A DNA stretch of 64,000 bases from assembly GCA_021790895.1 (NCBI GenBank), contig JAJYFM010000002.1, forward strand, positions 1-64,000, given 5' to 3'. How positions within the stretch are numbered: the stretch's first letter is position 1; each line of letters begins with the position of its first letter. Of the stretch, positions 494-6,478 are shown piece after piece. The position numbers and the translations under genes were made by a program. Under the pieces are notes generated by a model that was given only the letters and a program-made list of their open reading frames with translations, searched no databases and was not told the DNA's origin. Source of the DNA: a bacterium (GTDB lineage Bacteria; Vulcanimicrobiota; Vulcanimicrobiia; Vulcanimicrobiales; Vulcanimicrobiaceae).

Positions 494-1828
494 TTACTTA
501 CGGACGGGGGTTGGAAAGACGCCGACGCTGCGGAGGCCCTTTGCGTCGACGCTGCGGACCGCAAAGAGATCGTCGTCGTAGCTGATGGGGAGCGTCACCG
601 TGGTGACGTTGCCGACCGCGCGTACGTGCTGCCAGGTTGCGGCATCGGTTTTGCGCCAGAGAACTTCGTAGCCGACGGCGTCGGCCGAGCGGCGCCACCG
701 GAGCGTCGTCGTGTAGCCGAGGTGCGCGAGCACGATGTGCACGTGCGTCGGCGCAGCCGGGCCGAGGGCGAGCGTGGCGAGTGCCGCAACGTTGGCGCGC
801 GTCGACTGTGCGAGGTACTGCGGGTCGATATATTGCGGCAGGTCACCGTACTGGATTCCATTTTGTACGCGAACATTTTGATGCTGATGTTCGAAGACTT
901 CACTTGCCTCGGTGAAGCGAATCGCCGGATAGCCGACGCCCTGAAACGATTCTTGATCGCCGCCACGCAAAAAACGGTCGGCGCGGAAAATCTCCTGGAT
1001 GTGCAGGTGTGGGAGATAGATCTTATCGGTCGAGACGATAAAGCGTGCGAGTTCGCGCGACGGCGAATCGTTCTCGGTGCCGAGCAGGTTGACGAGCTTG
1101 CGCTTCGCGCCGAGCGGGAGCGCTTCGCTGAAAATGCGGAGCGTATGAAAGACGCTGCGCCCCGTATGCGTCTTCGAATTTCCGACGATATCGTTATTGA
1201 GATCGGCGAGAATCGGCGCGTGCTTCGCCGCCATCTCCTTTGCAAAGTGGTTGGAACCCCACAACCCGAGCTCTTCACCGTCGAAACACGCGAAGATAAT
1301 CGTGCCGCGAAAATGCGTTGCGGCCATGACGCGTGCGGCCTCCAGCACCGCCGAGGTTCCCGAACCGTTATCGTCGGCACCAGGCGCGACGCCGAGCCCG
1401 TCGGTACAGTTTCCATTACAGTCGTCGTAATGGCTCGACATTACGTAGATGCGCCCCGGCTCGCTGCCGCGTAAGGTCGCGATGACGCTCGATTCGGTCA
1501 CCGCGCGCGGCGTGTATTTGAGTTTCGGCTGCACGTAGGTATCGAGACGCACCGTCATGCGCCCGCCGGTCGTCGCCGCAATCTTTCGAAACTGCGCAAC
1601 GATCCAATCGCGCGCCGCGAAAACGCCCTGCGTTTTCGTCGAATGGATCTCCGAAAAATCGTTGCGCGTGCGAAAACCGACGAGTCTCTCGTCGATCGCG
1701 CGCAGGTGGCTCGCCGAGACGGCGCGCACCATAGCGAGAATGCGTGGATCGGGGCGTACGGAGGGGGCCGAGGCGGCGGTTGCTGTGAGGGCAACGGCGG
1801 CGGCAAAGGCGATCGATCGTGCAAGCAT
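494..1828 (-). CDS. Secreted M28-family zinc aminopeptidase
   Basis: The 444-residue protein starts with a signal peptide (hydrophobic to about residue 20, ASA cleavage region). It then has an M28 peptidase domain. The usual two-zinc ligands are visible: His in SSHYDD, Asp in GADDNGSG, the Glu pair in DGEELG, Asp in NNDIVG and a late His in EHQHQN. The last 90 residues look like a fibronectin-III-type beta domain, common at the C-terminus of secreted M28 enzymes. It probably trims N-terminal residues from peptides outside the cytoplasm. Its 5' end lies back-to-back with the GIY-YIG ORF and may overlap the latter's uncertain start. Substrate is unknown. Confidence 0.9.
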   Translation of the reverse strand: MLARSIAFAAAVALTATAASAPSVRPDPRILAMVRAVSASHLRAIDERLVGFRTRNDFSEIHSTKTQGVFAARDWIVAQFRKIAATTGGRMTVRLDTYVQPKLKYTPRAVTESSVIATLRGSEPGRIYVMSSHYDDCNGNCTDGLGVAPGADDNGSGTSAVLEAARVMAATHFRGTIIFACFDGEELGLWGSNHFAKEMAAKHAPILADLNNDIVGNSKTHTGRSVFHTLRIFSEALPLGAKRKLVNLLGTENDSPSRELARFIVSTDKIYLPHLHIQEIFRADRFLRGGDQESFQGVGYPAIRFTEASEVFEHQHQNVRVQNGIQYGDLPQYIDPQYLAQSTRANVAALATLALGPAAPTHVHIVLAHLGYTTTLRWRRSADAVGYEVLWRKTDAATWQHVRAVGNVTTVTLPISYDDDLFAVRSVDAKGLRSVGVFPTPVRK

Positions 1829-2666
1829 CCTTCAGACTTGCACCTCGCTACGACAAATCCCGCAGCGCGGAACCCCCGTCGTCTACGTGCTGGAGTGCGC
1901 CGACGGCGCGCTCTATACCGGCTGGAGTAACGACCTCGCGAGCCGAGTGCGCGCGCATCTCCGCGGCCGTGCCGCCAAGGCGACGCGACGGGCGCCGCCG
2001 GTTCGCTTGCATGCTTGGTGGCAGACCGATTCCGCGACGAATGCGCGTTCGACCGAGGCCCGCTTCAAGCGCCTTTCTCGGCACGAAAAGCTCGCGTTAT
2101 TGGCACGGGCGGAGGCCTTTGGGTATCGGGTTATCGAATCGCCGTTCGTTCCACGAGCCGTCCAGGGGGGAAAATCGATGGCCACACCACCGCAGCCGGA
2201 GGAGCGCGATGCGCTCTTAGAAACGGCACGCACGCACGTCGTTCGAATCGAAACGCCGAAGGGCGATATGCTGCTCTCACTCAATTCGGAGGCCGCACCG
2301 AATCACGCGGCGGCATTCGTCAAACTCGTTCAAGCGGGTTTTTACGACGGCCTGAATTTTCATCGTGTCGAACCGGGATTCGTCATTCAGGGCGGTTGCC
2401 CGGATGGCGACGGAACCGGTGGCCCCGGCTATCGCCTCAAGGCGGAGTTCAGCACGCTTCCGCACGTGCGCGGGACCCTGGCGATGGCACGCTCCTCGCA
2501 TCCCGATTCTGCCGGCTCGCAGTTTTACATCTGCTTGGATGATGCGCGCTTTCTCGACGGGCAATATACCGTCTTCGGGCAGTTAATTGACGGATTCGAG
2601 ACGCTCGACGCTATTCGCCGCGGTGACGCGATGACGCGCGTAACGATGGAACCTCGCGCAGCCTAG
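1785..2666 (+). CDS. GIY-YIG nuclease domain joined in frame to cyclophilin
   Basis: One uninterrupted frame encodes a GIY-YIG endonuclease domain (YVLECADGALYTGWSNDL, then an Arg and a downstream Glu) followed by a cyclophilin-type peptidyl-prolyl isomerase (FHRVEPGFVIQGG, SQFYICLDD, YTVFGQ). No stop separates them. The 5' end is uncertain: GTG at 1785 and ATG at 1740 are in frame, but both overlap the divergent peptidase gene, and GTG at 1887 would cut the GIY motif. An internal ATG at 2178 with a strong ribosome-binding site could give a free 162-residue cyclophilin. The TAG stop shares CTAG with the stop of the convergent ABC permease. It may be a true fusion, or two genes that lost the stop between them. 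Confidence 0.75.
   Translation: MRATAAAKAIDRASILQTCTSLRQIPQRGTPVVYVLECADGALYTGWSNDLASRVRAHLRGRAAKATRRAPPVRLHAWWQTDSATNARSTEARFKRLSRHEKLALLARAEAFGYRVIESPFVPRAVQGGKSMATPPQPEERDALLETARTHVVRIETPKGDMLLSLNSEAAPNHAAAFVKLVQAGFYDGLNFHRVEPGFVIQGGCPDGDGTGGPGYRLKAEFSTLPHVRGTLAMARSSHPDSAGSQFYICLDDARFLDGQYTVFGQLIDGFETLDAIRRGDAMTRVTMEPRAA
2164..2180 (+). promoter_or_regulatory. Internal ribosome-binding site and start for cyclophilin
   Basis: The run AGGGGGG lies seven bases before an in-frame ATG at 2178. The protein from that ATG begins just ahead of the cyclophilin fold, so an independently translated cyclophilin is likely whatever happens upstream. Confidence 0.6.
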
Positions 2667-3457
2667 GAACCCGTTCCCTGATAGCGGTTGAGTCCGAATC
2701 TCCAGAATACGTAGGAGATGCCGCTCCAGAGCAGGCCGATCAGCGGCGTGAGGAGCCCGACTTCGGGAGAGAGTCCAAACGCCGTATCGTGCTTTCCGAG
2801 GAGATAGCTCGCCGGAAAATAGTTCATGAAGGCAAACGGCAAGACGTAGGCGAGGACGATCCGCACTGCGCGCGTGTAGATACTGATCGGGTAGCGCGTA
2901 AAATCTTGCTCTAACGACATGACCGCCCAGCGCAACGTGTCGACGCGAATCAGCCAGAATGAGAGCGACGCGACGAAGAGCGAGATGCCGAGGTCGATAC
3001 CCGCACCGCCGCAGACGACGGCGGCGATGACGAGTATCGTTAGCGCCGAGATATGAATTCCCGCAACCCCGGTGGCGATCGCGAGCGTCACGCAACCGAG
3101 AATGAAGCCGTCCGGGAACGTGCGCGAGGGAACGGTGAGAACTTGAAAAAGCGTATCGAACGGGCGAACGAAGAACCGGTCGAAGCGTCCTTCGCGGATA
3201 TATTCTGGAACGTAGACGACGTTATAGAAGAGTGCGTTGTGAAGTTCGTGCGCCGTCATCCAAAGCGCGTAGAGAAAGAACATTTCACGAAGGTTCCAGC
3301 CGTTCATTGACGGGAAGCGCATCATCGTTACGGCAAGCGCGGCGAGCGCCGTCCCGTGGTAGACGATCGTAAAACCGAGCCACATAAAAAAGTCGGCGCG
3401 GTACTCGGCCATCGTGAGAAGATTGATTTTCCAATACTGCAGGTAAGCGGCGAGCAT
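2663..3457 (-). CDS. ABC-2 type transporter permease (second subunit)
   Basis: The 264-residue integral membrane protein has about six hydrophobic segments and the amphipathic N-terminus typical of the ABC-2_2 (DUF990-like) permeases found in two-permease exporters. ATG at 3457 is chosen because the homologous region begins there (MLAAYLQYWKINLL) and it lies 5 bp after the stop of the other permease. It ends the operon ATPase, beta-helix protein, permease 1, permease 2. The exported substrate is unknown. Related systems are annotated as drug, polysaccharide or lipid exporters, and the sequence does not discriminate among these. Confidence 0.85.
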   Translation of the reverse strand: MLAAYLQYWKINLLTMAEYRADFFMWLGFTIVYHGTALAALAVTMMRFPSMNGWNLREMFFLYALWMTAHELHNALFYNVVYVPEYIREGRFDRFFVRPFDTLFQVLTVPSRTFPDGFILGCVTLAIATGVAGIHISALTILVIAAVVCGGAGIDLGISLFVASLSFWLIRVDTLRWAVMSLEQDFTRYPISIYTRAVRIVLAYVLPFAFMNYFPASYLLGKHDTAFGLSPEVGLLTPLIGLLWSGISYVFWRFGLNRYQGTGS

Positions 3458-3462
3458 CTCGG

Positions 3463-4257
3463 TTAGCCCCCCTGCACGACGACGTGCCGGGCCGCGGCGC
3501 GCCAGAGAAGAAACGATGCGCCGGCGGTCGCCACAAGCCACGCTGCTTGAACGACCAGTGCAGTCGCCCACTGCTGCGGTGGAATGATGCCGATGTAGAT
3601 GAGCAGCGGCGTCGAATAGATCGCCGCGAACGGCAGCGCGAAGACCGCGCGCCCGAACCACCCGGGGAAGAACGCAAGCGGCAGAATCTGCCCGCTGAGA
3701 AGATCGGAGATCCAGCGCACGATCAGTTGGAGCCCGAAGGTCTCGAGCGTCCAGAAGGCCACTCCGTTCATGAGGAAGTTTACGAAAAAGTTCACCCCGT
3801 ATCCGAGTGCGAACGAGAGCACGAAGGCCGCGAGCGTCGTTGCCGACGGCACGTCGATATGAACCAGGAGCAACGAAAAAAGCAGCGACGGAAGAATCGC
3901 CAGGGCGTGTACCATCGTTTGGCCGACGCCGTCGCTGAAGTAGGCAAAGGGAACGACGATCGGTTTCATGAGGTCGAGCGCGATGCCGCCTTCGCGTAAT
4001 TTTTCGCGAATCACGCGCGTGCCGTCAACCTCCAAAACGAGCGACATGAGCATCGCCACCGTCGCATAGGTAATCATCGCGTGGAGCGGCAGCCCCGTCG
4101 GCGCGATGTTGTGCGCGTAGAGCGCCGTCCAGAGCGAACGCAAGAGGTAGACGCGGAGCACCACCGACCCGACCTCGGCGAGCAGTTCGATACGATAGGT
4201 GGCTTCGCGCGCGAATGCTTTGCGCGCGTACTCGATGTAGGGCGCGAATACGGTCAC
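3463..4257 (-). CDS. ABC-2 type transporter permease (first subunit)
   Basis: A 264-residue membrane protein with six predicted helices, paralogous in layout to its downstream partner. ATG at 4257 overlaps the stop of the beta-helix gene (ATGA), which implies translational coupling. Together the two permeases would form a heterodimer served by the ATPase encoded first in the operon. Confidence 0.85.
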   Translation of the reverse strand: MTVFAPYIEYARKAFAREATYRIELLAEVGSVVLRVYLLRSLWTALYAHNIAPTGLPLHAMITYATVAMLMSLVLEVDGTRVIREKLREGGIALDLMKPIVVPFAYFSDGVGQTMVHALAILPSLLFSLLLVHIDVPSATTLAAFVLSFALGYGVNFFVNFLMNGVAFWTLETFGLQLIVRWISDLLSGQILPLAFFPGWFGRAVFALPFAAIYSTPLLIYIGIIPPQQWATALVVQAAWLVATAGASFLLWRAAARHVVVQGG

Positions 4258-5012
4258 GAAGGCGGGCGTTTTTTGGTCGCTTCTTTTCGACGCTGCTCCA
4301 TCTCTTGGAGCTCGAGCATCATCGCATCGACGACGCCGCCGACATCGGCGACCTGCTGCTGCGGCGGCTCCTCGCCGGCTCGGCGCGCGACCGGTTTGGT
4401 GCTGCGCTCGCTATCGATACGCGCATCGGTAGCGTGGAATGCGCGCAGGAAGCGCGAGTAGGCGGCCGCGGCTTTCGCGCGCGCCGAGGAACCGGCCTCG
4501 ATATTAAAGACCGTCTCGAAGAAGTTGAGCCGCTCCGCAAGCTCGGCGGCTTTCTCCGGTCCAAAGATCGCCGCTGGGTTGCCGGCTGCGATGTGCTGCA
4601 TCGGGACGCTCGCACCGCGAGCGAGCCGTGCATTGACGTGCACGATGCCGCCGATCGCGACGCCGCTTCCGGCCTCCATATGCGCTCCGTTAAAGACCCG
4701 CGCGCCGGAAGCGATAAAGCATCCGTCGTCGATGCGGGCGCCGACCACGAAAGCACCGGGGCCGACGATGCAATCTTTCCCGATCTGCGTCGGGAATTGC
4801 AGCGCCTTCCCACCGCTGCTTTTCACGACCGCGTTCTCCATGATGACGGTACGCGCGCCGATCTCCAACGGCGCACCCTCGGCGGTCAGAACCGCTCCGT
4901 GCAAGATCGCGCAATCAGGGCCGACGACGACCTCACCGGAGAGAACGGCGCTCGGTGCCACGTAGGCGCTGGAATGAATCTTCGGTTTCCCTCCGCCGCT
5001 GCTGAATATCAT
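4254..5012 (-). CDS. Left-handed beta-helix protein, gamma-carbonic-anhydrase-like without zinc ligands
   Basis: Residues 1-165 show the hexapeptide rhythm of a left-handed beta-helix and align by eye with the gamma-carbonic anhydrase/YrdA family. Family landmarks are recognisable, but the three zinc histidines are replaced. Where the family has Asn-x-x-x-His this protein has NAVVK, and where it has GHGAxxHG this one has GPGAFVVG. Residues about 180-252 form an extra charged, helical tail absent from the 170-180-residue enzymes. The gene overlaps both the ATPase (ATGA at 5009-5012) and permease 1 by 4 bp, so it is embedded in the exporter operon. A structural or regulatory role is more likely than CO2 hydration, but that is inference. 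Confidence 0.8.
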   Translation of the reverse strand: MIFSSGGGKPKIHSSAYVAPSAVLSGEVVVGPDCAILHGAVLTAEGAPLEIGARTVIMENAVVKSSGGKALQFPTQIGKDCIVGPGAFVVGARIDDGCFIASGARVFNGAHMEAGSGVAIGGIVHVNARLARGASVPMQHIAAGNPAAIFGPEKAAELAERLNFFETVFNIEAGSSARAKAAAAYSRFLRAFHATDARIDSERSTKPVARRAGEEPPQQQVADVGGVVDAMMLELQEMEQRRKEATKKRPPS

Positions 5013-6118: not shown

Positions 6119-6478
6119 TTAGGCTGCTGCCTTCTTCCGGCGTGCTGTCGCTTTCCGTGCGCGCGGTTTGCTCACTTTGCGAGCTACCTTGCGGGTCGCG
6201 CGCTTCGCGGTCTTGCGCTTCGTGGTCTTGCGTTTCGCGGTGGCGCGCTTTGCCGTTTTGCGCTTTGCCGTTTTACGCTTCGCCGTTTTACGCTTCGCCG
6301 TCTTGCGGGCCGGGCGCTTCGCTGCCTTGCGGCGGGTGGTTTTCTTGCGCGCGGTCGCTTTGCGGGCGGTCTTCTTGCGCGTCGCCTTCTTACGGGCGGG
6401 CGCCTTGCGAGCCGCCTTTTTCGGGGCGGCTTTCTTGGCGGCACGTTTCGGTGCAGCCTTGCTCTTTTTAACAGCCAT
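6119..6478 (-). CDS. Histone H1-like Lys/Ala/Arg-rich nucleoid protein
   Basis: The 119-residue, extremely basic protein is built almost wholly of Lys, Arg, Ala and Thr in short tandem motifs (KRKTA and ARKKT units). It has no hydrophobic core, like eukaryotic H1 tails and bacterial Hc1/AlgP-type proteins. It likely binds DNA non-specifically and compacts the nucleoid. ATG at 6478 is the first start before the repeats. A sigma70-like promoter lies upstream and a strong terminator downstream, so it is monocistronic. The coding repeats make it prone to length changes. Confidence 0.85.
   Translation of the reverse strand: MAVKKSKAAPKRAAKKAAPKKAARKAPARKKATRKKTARKATARKKTTRRKAAKRPARKTAKRKTAKRKTAKRKTAKRATAKRKTTKRKTAKRATRKVARKVSKPRARKATARRKKAAA

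What the first reader, a model, noticed from the sequence alone, without database searches (positions are those of the whole stretch)
4254..5012. Gamma-carbonic-anhydrase fold without zinc histidines inside an exporter operon
The beta-helix protein has lost the three metal histidines and gained a charged C-terminal tail, and it overlaps both exporter genes by 4 bp. It may have been repurposed as a transporter subunit, assembly factor or acyl-transfer scaffold.
Basis: partly seen in the sequence, partly recalled or inferred. Interest (0 to 1): 0.55.

Follow-up and report, generated by a model that had tools for sequence, protein, structure and literature searches.

The report
Zinc-less carbonic-anhydrase-fold protein beside exporter
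This gene makes a carbonic-anhydrase-shaped protein that really has lost its zinc-binding histidines, but the same loss is found in all relatives sampled across many bacterial phyla, and the protein is kept in lineages that have lost the neighbouring exporter, so it is not simply an exporter part.

Summary
ORF 4254-5012 (minus strand, 252 aa) is a left-handed beta-helix protein of gamma-carbonic-anhydrase type. All three zinc-histidine columns are replaced (K64, P85, V90). It has a linker and C-terminal helix, and 4-bp overlaps (ATGA, GTGA) with an ABC ATPase and a PF06182 permease. The order ATPase-protein-PermA is conserved in most Ca. Eremiobacterota that carry it, and in none of the other phyla examined.

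The histidine loss did not arise in this operon: every sampled member of a subfamily of ~200-aa proteins in Actinomycetota, Proteobacteria, Acidobacteriota, Bacillota, Chloroflexota and others lacks all three histidines and has no such transporter nearby. Only the tail is Eremiobacterial. Three separate lineages lost the exporter cleanly and a fourth is losing it. All keep the gene, in one genus at dN/dS 0.06-0.13. Forty genomes keep the permease without the gene. The protein is thus separable from the exporter.

The old pocket looks remodelled rather than decayed (E45, E59, K/R64, H193, D196 nearly invariant). Best reading: a zinc-free beta-helix adaptor or ligand-binding protein with a lineage-specific docking tail, co-transcribed with but not obligate to the exporter. 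Partner and ligand are unknown. New variant of a known kind; moderate interest.

The parts
4254..5012 (-). GCAL: zinc-less gamma-CA-like left-handed beta-helix protein, 252 aa
4563..5012 (-). beta-helix domain, residues 1-150; zinc-histidine columns occupied by K64 (4821-4823), P85 (4758-4760), V90 (4743-4745); subfamily-conserved E45 (4878-4880), E59 (4836-4838), H125 (4638-4640)
4425..4562 (-). C-terminal alpha-helices, residues 151-196, with conserved Y185, L189, H193, D196
4347..4424 (-). low-confidence (disordered) Pro/charge-rich linker, residues 197-222
   Evidence: pLDDT about 44-51
4254..4346 (-). C-terminal helix (residues 223-252) found only in Eremiobacterota members, plus stop codon
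5009..6028 (-). ABC exporter ATPase (DrrA-like), upstream in the operon; ATGA overlap with GCAL
3463..4257 (-). PermA, PF06182 ABC-2 type permease; GTGA overlap with GCAL
2663..3457 (-). PermB, second PF06182 permease, starting 5 bp after the PermA stop

Best explanation
GCAL belongs to a pan-bacterial, uncharacterised subfamily of gamma-CA-like beta-helix proteins that lack the zinc site. SHOWN (sequence and model): beta-helix head; no zinc histidines; conserved E45, E59, K/R64, P85, H193, D196; an Eremiobacteria-only linker and C-terminal helix; operon position inside an ABC exporter; retention under purifying selection after exporter loss. INFERRED: the head is a homotrimer in which glutamates E45/E59 and K/R64 replace the zinc bridge between subunits and form a remodelled ligand pocket with H193/D196. 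The tail is a docking helix on a flexible tether. The protein works as a soluble, non-catalytic adaptor or ligand-binding scaffold. It was inserted once between the ATPase and first permease genes in an ancestor of the order and is co-expressed with the exporter, but its essential partner lies elsewhere or includes more than the exporter.
For: Zinc columns replaced in every sampled subfamily member; conserved residues E45, E59, K/R64, P85, H193, D196; confident beta-helix model with tethered C-helix and gamma-CA fold hits. Operon order is conserved within Eremiobacteria and absent elsewhere. GCAL is kept without the exporter in g21, g27 and G108/G109, and in G104 where the ATPase is broken; these fall on separate branches of the GCAL tree. 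dN/dS is 0.06-0.13 in exporter-less g21, against 0.04-0.16 in exporter-bearing genera with full-length copies. The tail persists even where the distal coils are deleted, a deletion seen in several branches. Precedent for a gamma-CA-fold subunit lacking zinc histidines in a membrane complex: plant complex I CAL2 lacks two of three (PMC7447434).
Against: No partner, ligand or oligomeric state is shown. Adaptor versus enzyme is not decided: conserved acidic and His/Asp residues would suit either. The near-constant gene order in most carriers, with translational coupling, argues for some functional tie to the exporter. The C-helix is not amphipathic by hydrophobic moment (0.22, same as shuffles).
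Confidence: 0.45

Rival explanations
1. GCAL is an enzyme with a relocated active site (for example acyl transfer, hydrolysis or isomerisation) built from E45, E59, K/R64, H193, D196 and, in full-length forms, H125. It modifies a metabolite that the exporter may carry.
For: Residues are invariant or nearly so across phyla. LbH relatives include PaaY and NeuD-type enzymes (weak hits). Strong purifying selection.
Against: H125 and the distal coils are deleted in many natural Eremiobacterial copies that stay in the operon. No enzyme family model passes its cut-off. No consistent metabolic neighbour genes outside the phylum.
Confidence: 0.27
2. GCAL is a dedicated exporter subunit or assembly factor that holds ATPase and permeases together through its tail.
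For: Gene order ATPase-GCAL-PermA in 60 of 68 carrier genomes plus the short forms of genus g19; 4-bp overlaps on both sides; tail confined to the phylum with this operon.
Against: Three clean exporter losses plus one decaying operon with GCAL kept under selection; 40 genomes with PermA but no GCAL; no co-occurrence signal.
Confidence: 0.15
3. GCAL is a CcmN-like adaptor whose C-terminal helix is an encapsulation peptide for a protein shell.
For: Same layout: LbH head, disordered linker, terminal helix (CcmN and encapsulation peptides described in PMC12339742).
Against: No PF00936 shell gene in the own genome or nine genus mates; the helix has no amphipathic moment.
Confidence: 0.03
4. GCAL is still a carbonic anhydrase using shifted histidines.
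For: Gamma-CA fold; some subfamily members have H86 and H88 one and three residues after the old ligand column.
Against: H86 and H88 are not conserved and are absent in the window protein; the R, D and Q columns of the classical site are T43, E45 and M58.
Confidence: 0.04
5. GCAL is a passenger gene with no role in this lineage.
For: Repeated coil deletions and outright loss in some lineages.
Against: dN/dS 0.04-0.16 in full-length copies and 0.11-0.28 in short ones; conserved tail and head residues.
Confidence: 0.04

Closest known systems
Prokaryotic gamma-carbonic anhydrases (CamH/Cap/YrdA type; PDB 6sc4, 6ive, 1v3w, 3tio)
   Same: Left-handed beta-helix with C-terminal helix, about 30% identity to 6ive
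   Different: All three zinc histidines and the R/D/Q active-site columns are replaced; extra segment carrying H125; C-terminal linker and helix
Plant mitochondrial complex I CAL subunits (gamma-CA-like)
   Same: Gamma-CA fold with zinc ligands lost (CAL2 lacks two of three, PMC7447434), serving in a membrane complex
   Different: Distant in sequence; structural place in complex I is proven, whereas no partner is known here
Uncharacterised 'gamma carbonic anhydrase family protein' of about 200 aa (Agrobacterium, Roseibium, Streptomyces, Priestia and others)
   Same: Same subfamily: 38-49% identity over residues 1-196, same loss of zinc histidines, same conserved E45/E59/R64/H193/D196
   Different: No C-terminal linker or helix and no ABC exporter beside them
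CcmN/CcmM of carboxysomes
   Same: LbH head followed by linker and terminal element
   Different: No shell genes; family scores far below cut-off (36 vs 550 bits for CcmM, 13.5 vs 100 for CcmN)
DrrAB-like ABC exporters with PF06182 permease pairs
   Same: The operon around GCAL
   Different: Typical operons of this kind, also in class relatives G045 and G017, have no LbH gene inside

Membership tests
Gamma-carbonic anhydrase | Left-handed beta-helix fold | tested here: met
   AlphaFold2 pLDDT 88; Foldseek to 6ive/6sc4 E about 1e-10
Gamma-carbonic anhydrase | Three zinc-binding histidines | tested here: not met
   K64, P85, V90 at those columns (alignments); lost in all sampled subfamily members
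Gamma-carbonic anhydrase | Conserved Arg/Asp (RGD) and Gln (IQD) active-site columns | tested here: not met
   T43-A44-E45 and M58-E59 (alignments)
Gamma-carbonic anhydrase | Score above the curated family cut-off (NF050158, 250 bits) | tested here: not met
   55.8 bits; the own-genome gamma-CA-type paralogue itself scores 154.5
Gamma-carbonic anhydrase | Trimer and CO2 hydration | not testable with these tools
   needs purified protein
Zinc-less gamma-CA-like subfamily (unnamed, 'TAE..MENAV(R/K)..GP') | E45, E59, K/R64, P85, H193, D196 with zinc histidines absent | tested here: met
   40 Eremiobacterota and 28 other sequences
Zinc-less gamma-CA-like subfamily (unnamed, 'TAE..MENAV(R/K)..GP') | H125 in the extra distal segment | tested here: met
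   present in the window protein and in 28/28 outside sequences; deleted in about a quarter of the Eremiobacterial ones
LbH acyltransferase | Hexapeptide repeats | tested here: met
   PF00132 44 bits
LbH acyltransferase | Match to an acyltransferase family above cut-off | tested here: not met
   NeuD 34 of 160.8 bits, LpxA/LpxD/GlmU lower
LbH acyltransferase | CoA binding and catalytic histidine loop | not testable with these tools
   no coordinates of a trimer available
Subunit of the ABC exporter | Conserved operon position | tested here: met
Subunit of the ABC exporter | Present only when the exporter is present, and the reverse | tested here: not met
   7 genomes GCAL only, 40 PermA only
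Subunit of the ABC exporter | Physical association | not testable with these tools
   needs co-purification
CcmN-like shell adaptor | Shell (BMC) proteins in the genome | tested here: not met
   none in G000 or nine genus mates

The most novel reading that the evidence does not exclude
Databases hide, under the name 'gamma carbonic anhydrase family protein', a distinct family present in many phyla. In it the zinc site was replaced by a Glu/Glu-Arg(Lys) cluster plus a new His-xx-Asp pair on the C-terminal helix, giving a metal-free function (enzyme or ligand sensor) never assigned. Eremiobacteria tethered it through a new tail to a partner and coupled its expression to an exporter.
Probability: 0.25. 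Interest if true: 0.6.

Novelty: new variant of a known kind. Interest (0 to 1): 0.4.

Why it matters
A group of bacterial proteins is labelled carbonic anhydrase although every member sampled lacks the zinc ligands, so the label is probably wrong for them; their conserved residues point to a different, unassigned job. The Eremiobacterial loci add a natural experiment: several independent losses of the exporter leave the beta-helix gene under selection, which separates operon neighbourhood from functional dependence.

Tried and rejected
Repurposing inside this operon: rejected, because the histidine loss is subfamily-wide. Obligate exporter subunit: disfavoured by exporter-less carriers. Shifted histidines as a new zinc site: H86 and H88 are not conserved. 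Microcompartment adaptor: no shell genes in the genus. Amphipathic tail: hydrophobic moment 0.22, same as shuffles. Tail fused to other proteins: every tail hit with E below about 1e-3 belongs to a GCAL gene (two are GCAL pieces cut by contig ends); the few weaker hits elsewhere look like chance. Plasmid neighbours of the subfamily gave no consistent partner (two records without annotation). Literature: no paper found on gamma-CA-like proteins in Eremiobacterota or beside ABC exporters in the library held. RicA of Brucella was considered as a precedent, but it keeps its histidines (PMC3527289).

Full report
WHAT IS THERE. The window lies in a 2.1 Mb, 84% complete genome whose relatives are named Candidatus Eremiobacterota. 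On the minus strand four genes follow one another: an ABC ATPase (6028-5009, DrrA-like), the gene in question (5012-4254, here GCAL), and two PF06182 ABC-2 permeases, PermA (4257-3463) and PermB (3457-2663). GCAL overlaps its neighbours by ATGA and GTGA, so translational coupling is plausible; PermB starts 5 bp after PermA.

FOLD AND ZINC SITE. GCAL matches the hexapeptide repeat, gamma-CA chains of the PDB by sequence and by fold. An AlphaFold2 model from 68 natural sequences has pLDDT near 98 over most of the beta-helix (1-150), about 90 over helices 151-196, below 52 over the linker, and about 56-80 over a last helix 224-247. In the alignments with 9f5x_s and 6sc4 printed, the three zinc histidines correspond to K64, P85 and V90; the RGD column triplet is T43-A44-E45 and the IQD triplet is I57-M58-E59. 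The gamma-CA model NF050158 gives 55.8 bits against a cut-off of 250. The genome also holds a separate, more typical gamma-CA paralogue (contig 65), itself with Glu at the third ligand column.

THE LOSS IS OLD. A scan of genome contigs found the same subfamily in Streptomyces, Micromonospora, Solirubrobacter, Blastocatellia, Alpha-, Beta- and Deltaproteobacteria, Chloroflexota, Bacillota, Planctomycetota and others, and plasmids add Priestia, Agrobacterium and Rhizobium. These are about 200 aa, 38-49% identical, and all sampled ones lack the three histidines. None has the ATPase-permease pair nearby (three have only a distant ~30% ATPase hit). Residues E45, E59 and P85 are invariant in 68 sequences; K/R64, H193 and D196 nearly so; H125 is in all 28 outside sequences but deleted in about a quarter of the Eremiobacterial ones. 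In the tree the outside sequences form one group (98/95), so the Eremiobacterial copies trace to one ancestor. What is special to Eremiobacteria is the linker and last helix.

LINK TO THE EXPORTER. Of 117 class genomes, 68 have a clear GCAL; in 60 of these PermA follows directly on the same strand. Adding the short forms of genus g19 gives 66 genomes with both genes, 7 with GCAL only, 1 cut by a contig end, 40 with PermA only and 3 with neither found (one of which, G036, has a PermA fragment at a contig end). Presence and absence show no association (Fisher p = 0.74; relatedness not corrected). GCAL-lacking operons fall mostly in one clade plus the G017 line, and the sister family f3 lacks GCAL, which fits one gain in the order and one or two later losses (inference).

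EXPORTER LOST, GCAL KEPT. G029, G086 and G087 (one genus) and G035 have no PF06182 permease and no such ATPase anywhere; GCAL sits intact between the same outer neighbours, a divergent MFS gene and the cyclophilin gene, that flank the complete operon elsewhere. G108 and G109 also lack PF06182; there GCAL runs into a beta-lactamase-like gene. In G104 the ATPase is a broken remnant, PermA is not found and a partial PF06182 sits on another contig. These cases lie on separate branches of the GCAL tree with exporter-bearing lineages between. GCAL in the exporter-less genus shows dN/dS 0.06-0.13, like exporter-bearing genera. Hence GCAL has a role that does not need this exporter.

DELETED COILS. 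In several Eremiobacterial branches the same distal segment, about residues 120-162 including H125, is missing while the head, helices and tail stay. A model of such a form (L128) keeps a shorter beta-helix, the helices and the last helix (pLDDT 84). So H125 and the distal coils are dispensable here and the tail is not; this favours docking or scaffolding over an active site at H125.

MECHANISM. Inferred: a zinc-free beta-helix trimer whose interface pocket has been rebuilt with E45/E59, K/R64 and possibly H193/D196, with a tethered helix that docks on a partner. Plant complex I CAL2, which lacks two of the three histidines and is built into a membrane complex, is a working precedent (PMC7447434). 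Whether the pocket binds a ligand or catalyses something is open; that rival is the closest competitor. Not shown: oligomer state, geometry of the conserved residues (no model coordinates were available), partners, activity.

VERDICT. Observation correct; reading as a locally repurposed transporter part not supported. New variant of a known kind, moderate interest. The most valuable by-product is a sampled subfamily that annotation calls carbonic anhydrase but that lacks the catalytic residues.

Noticed in passing
window 1557-2666 (+): One ORF fuses a GIY-YIG nuclease domain (PF01541) and a cyclophilin peptidyl-prolyl isomerase (PF00160); the same fusion is seen in relatives L042 and L043.
   Followed up: partly
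L001 (own genome contig 65), L037, L038: The Eremiobacterial gamma-CA paralogues read GHxxxMEDC: the third zinc histidine is a glutamate.
   Followed up: no
relatives, between PermA and PermB (L044, L046, L050): This interval is an insertion hot spot: DNA-glycosylase-like, pirin-like, Rieske-oxygenase-like, sigma-factor-like and other genes by sequence.
   Followed up: no
L123, L126-L135, L133/L136, L121, L124, genus g19 loci: The distal beta-helix coils of GCAL (about residues 120-162) are missing in several branches of the tree while head and tail remain, suggesting repeated deletion of the same segment.
   Followed up: partly
window 6119-6478 (-): Short Lys/Ala-rich histone-H1-like protein next to the ABC operon; a similar gene sits near GCAL in L043.
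   Followed up: no
L185:477-1361, L186:5386-6270, L045: A PF13354 beta-lactamase-like gene follows PermB, or GCAL itself where the exporter is lost.
   Followed up: no
G011, G023 and other classes of the phylum: Microcompartment shell genes occur sporadically in the phylum but not in this genus.
   Followed up: no
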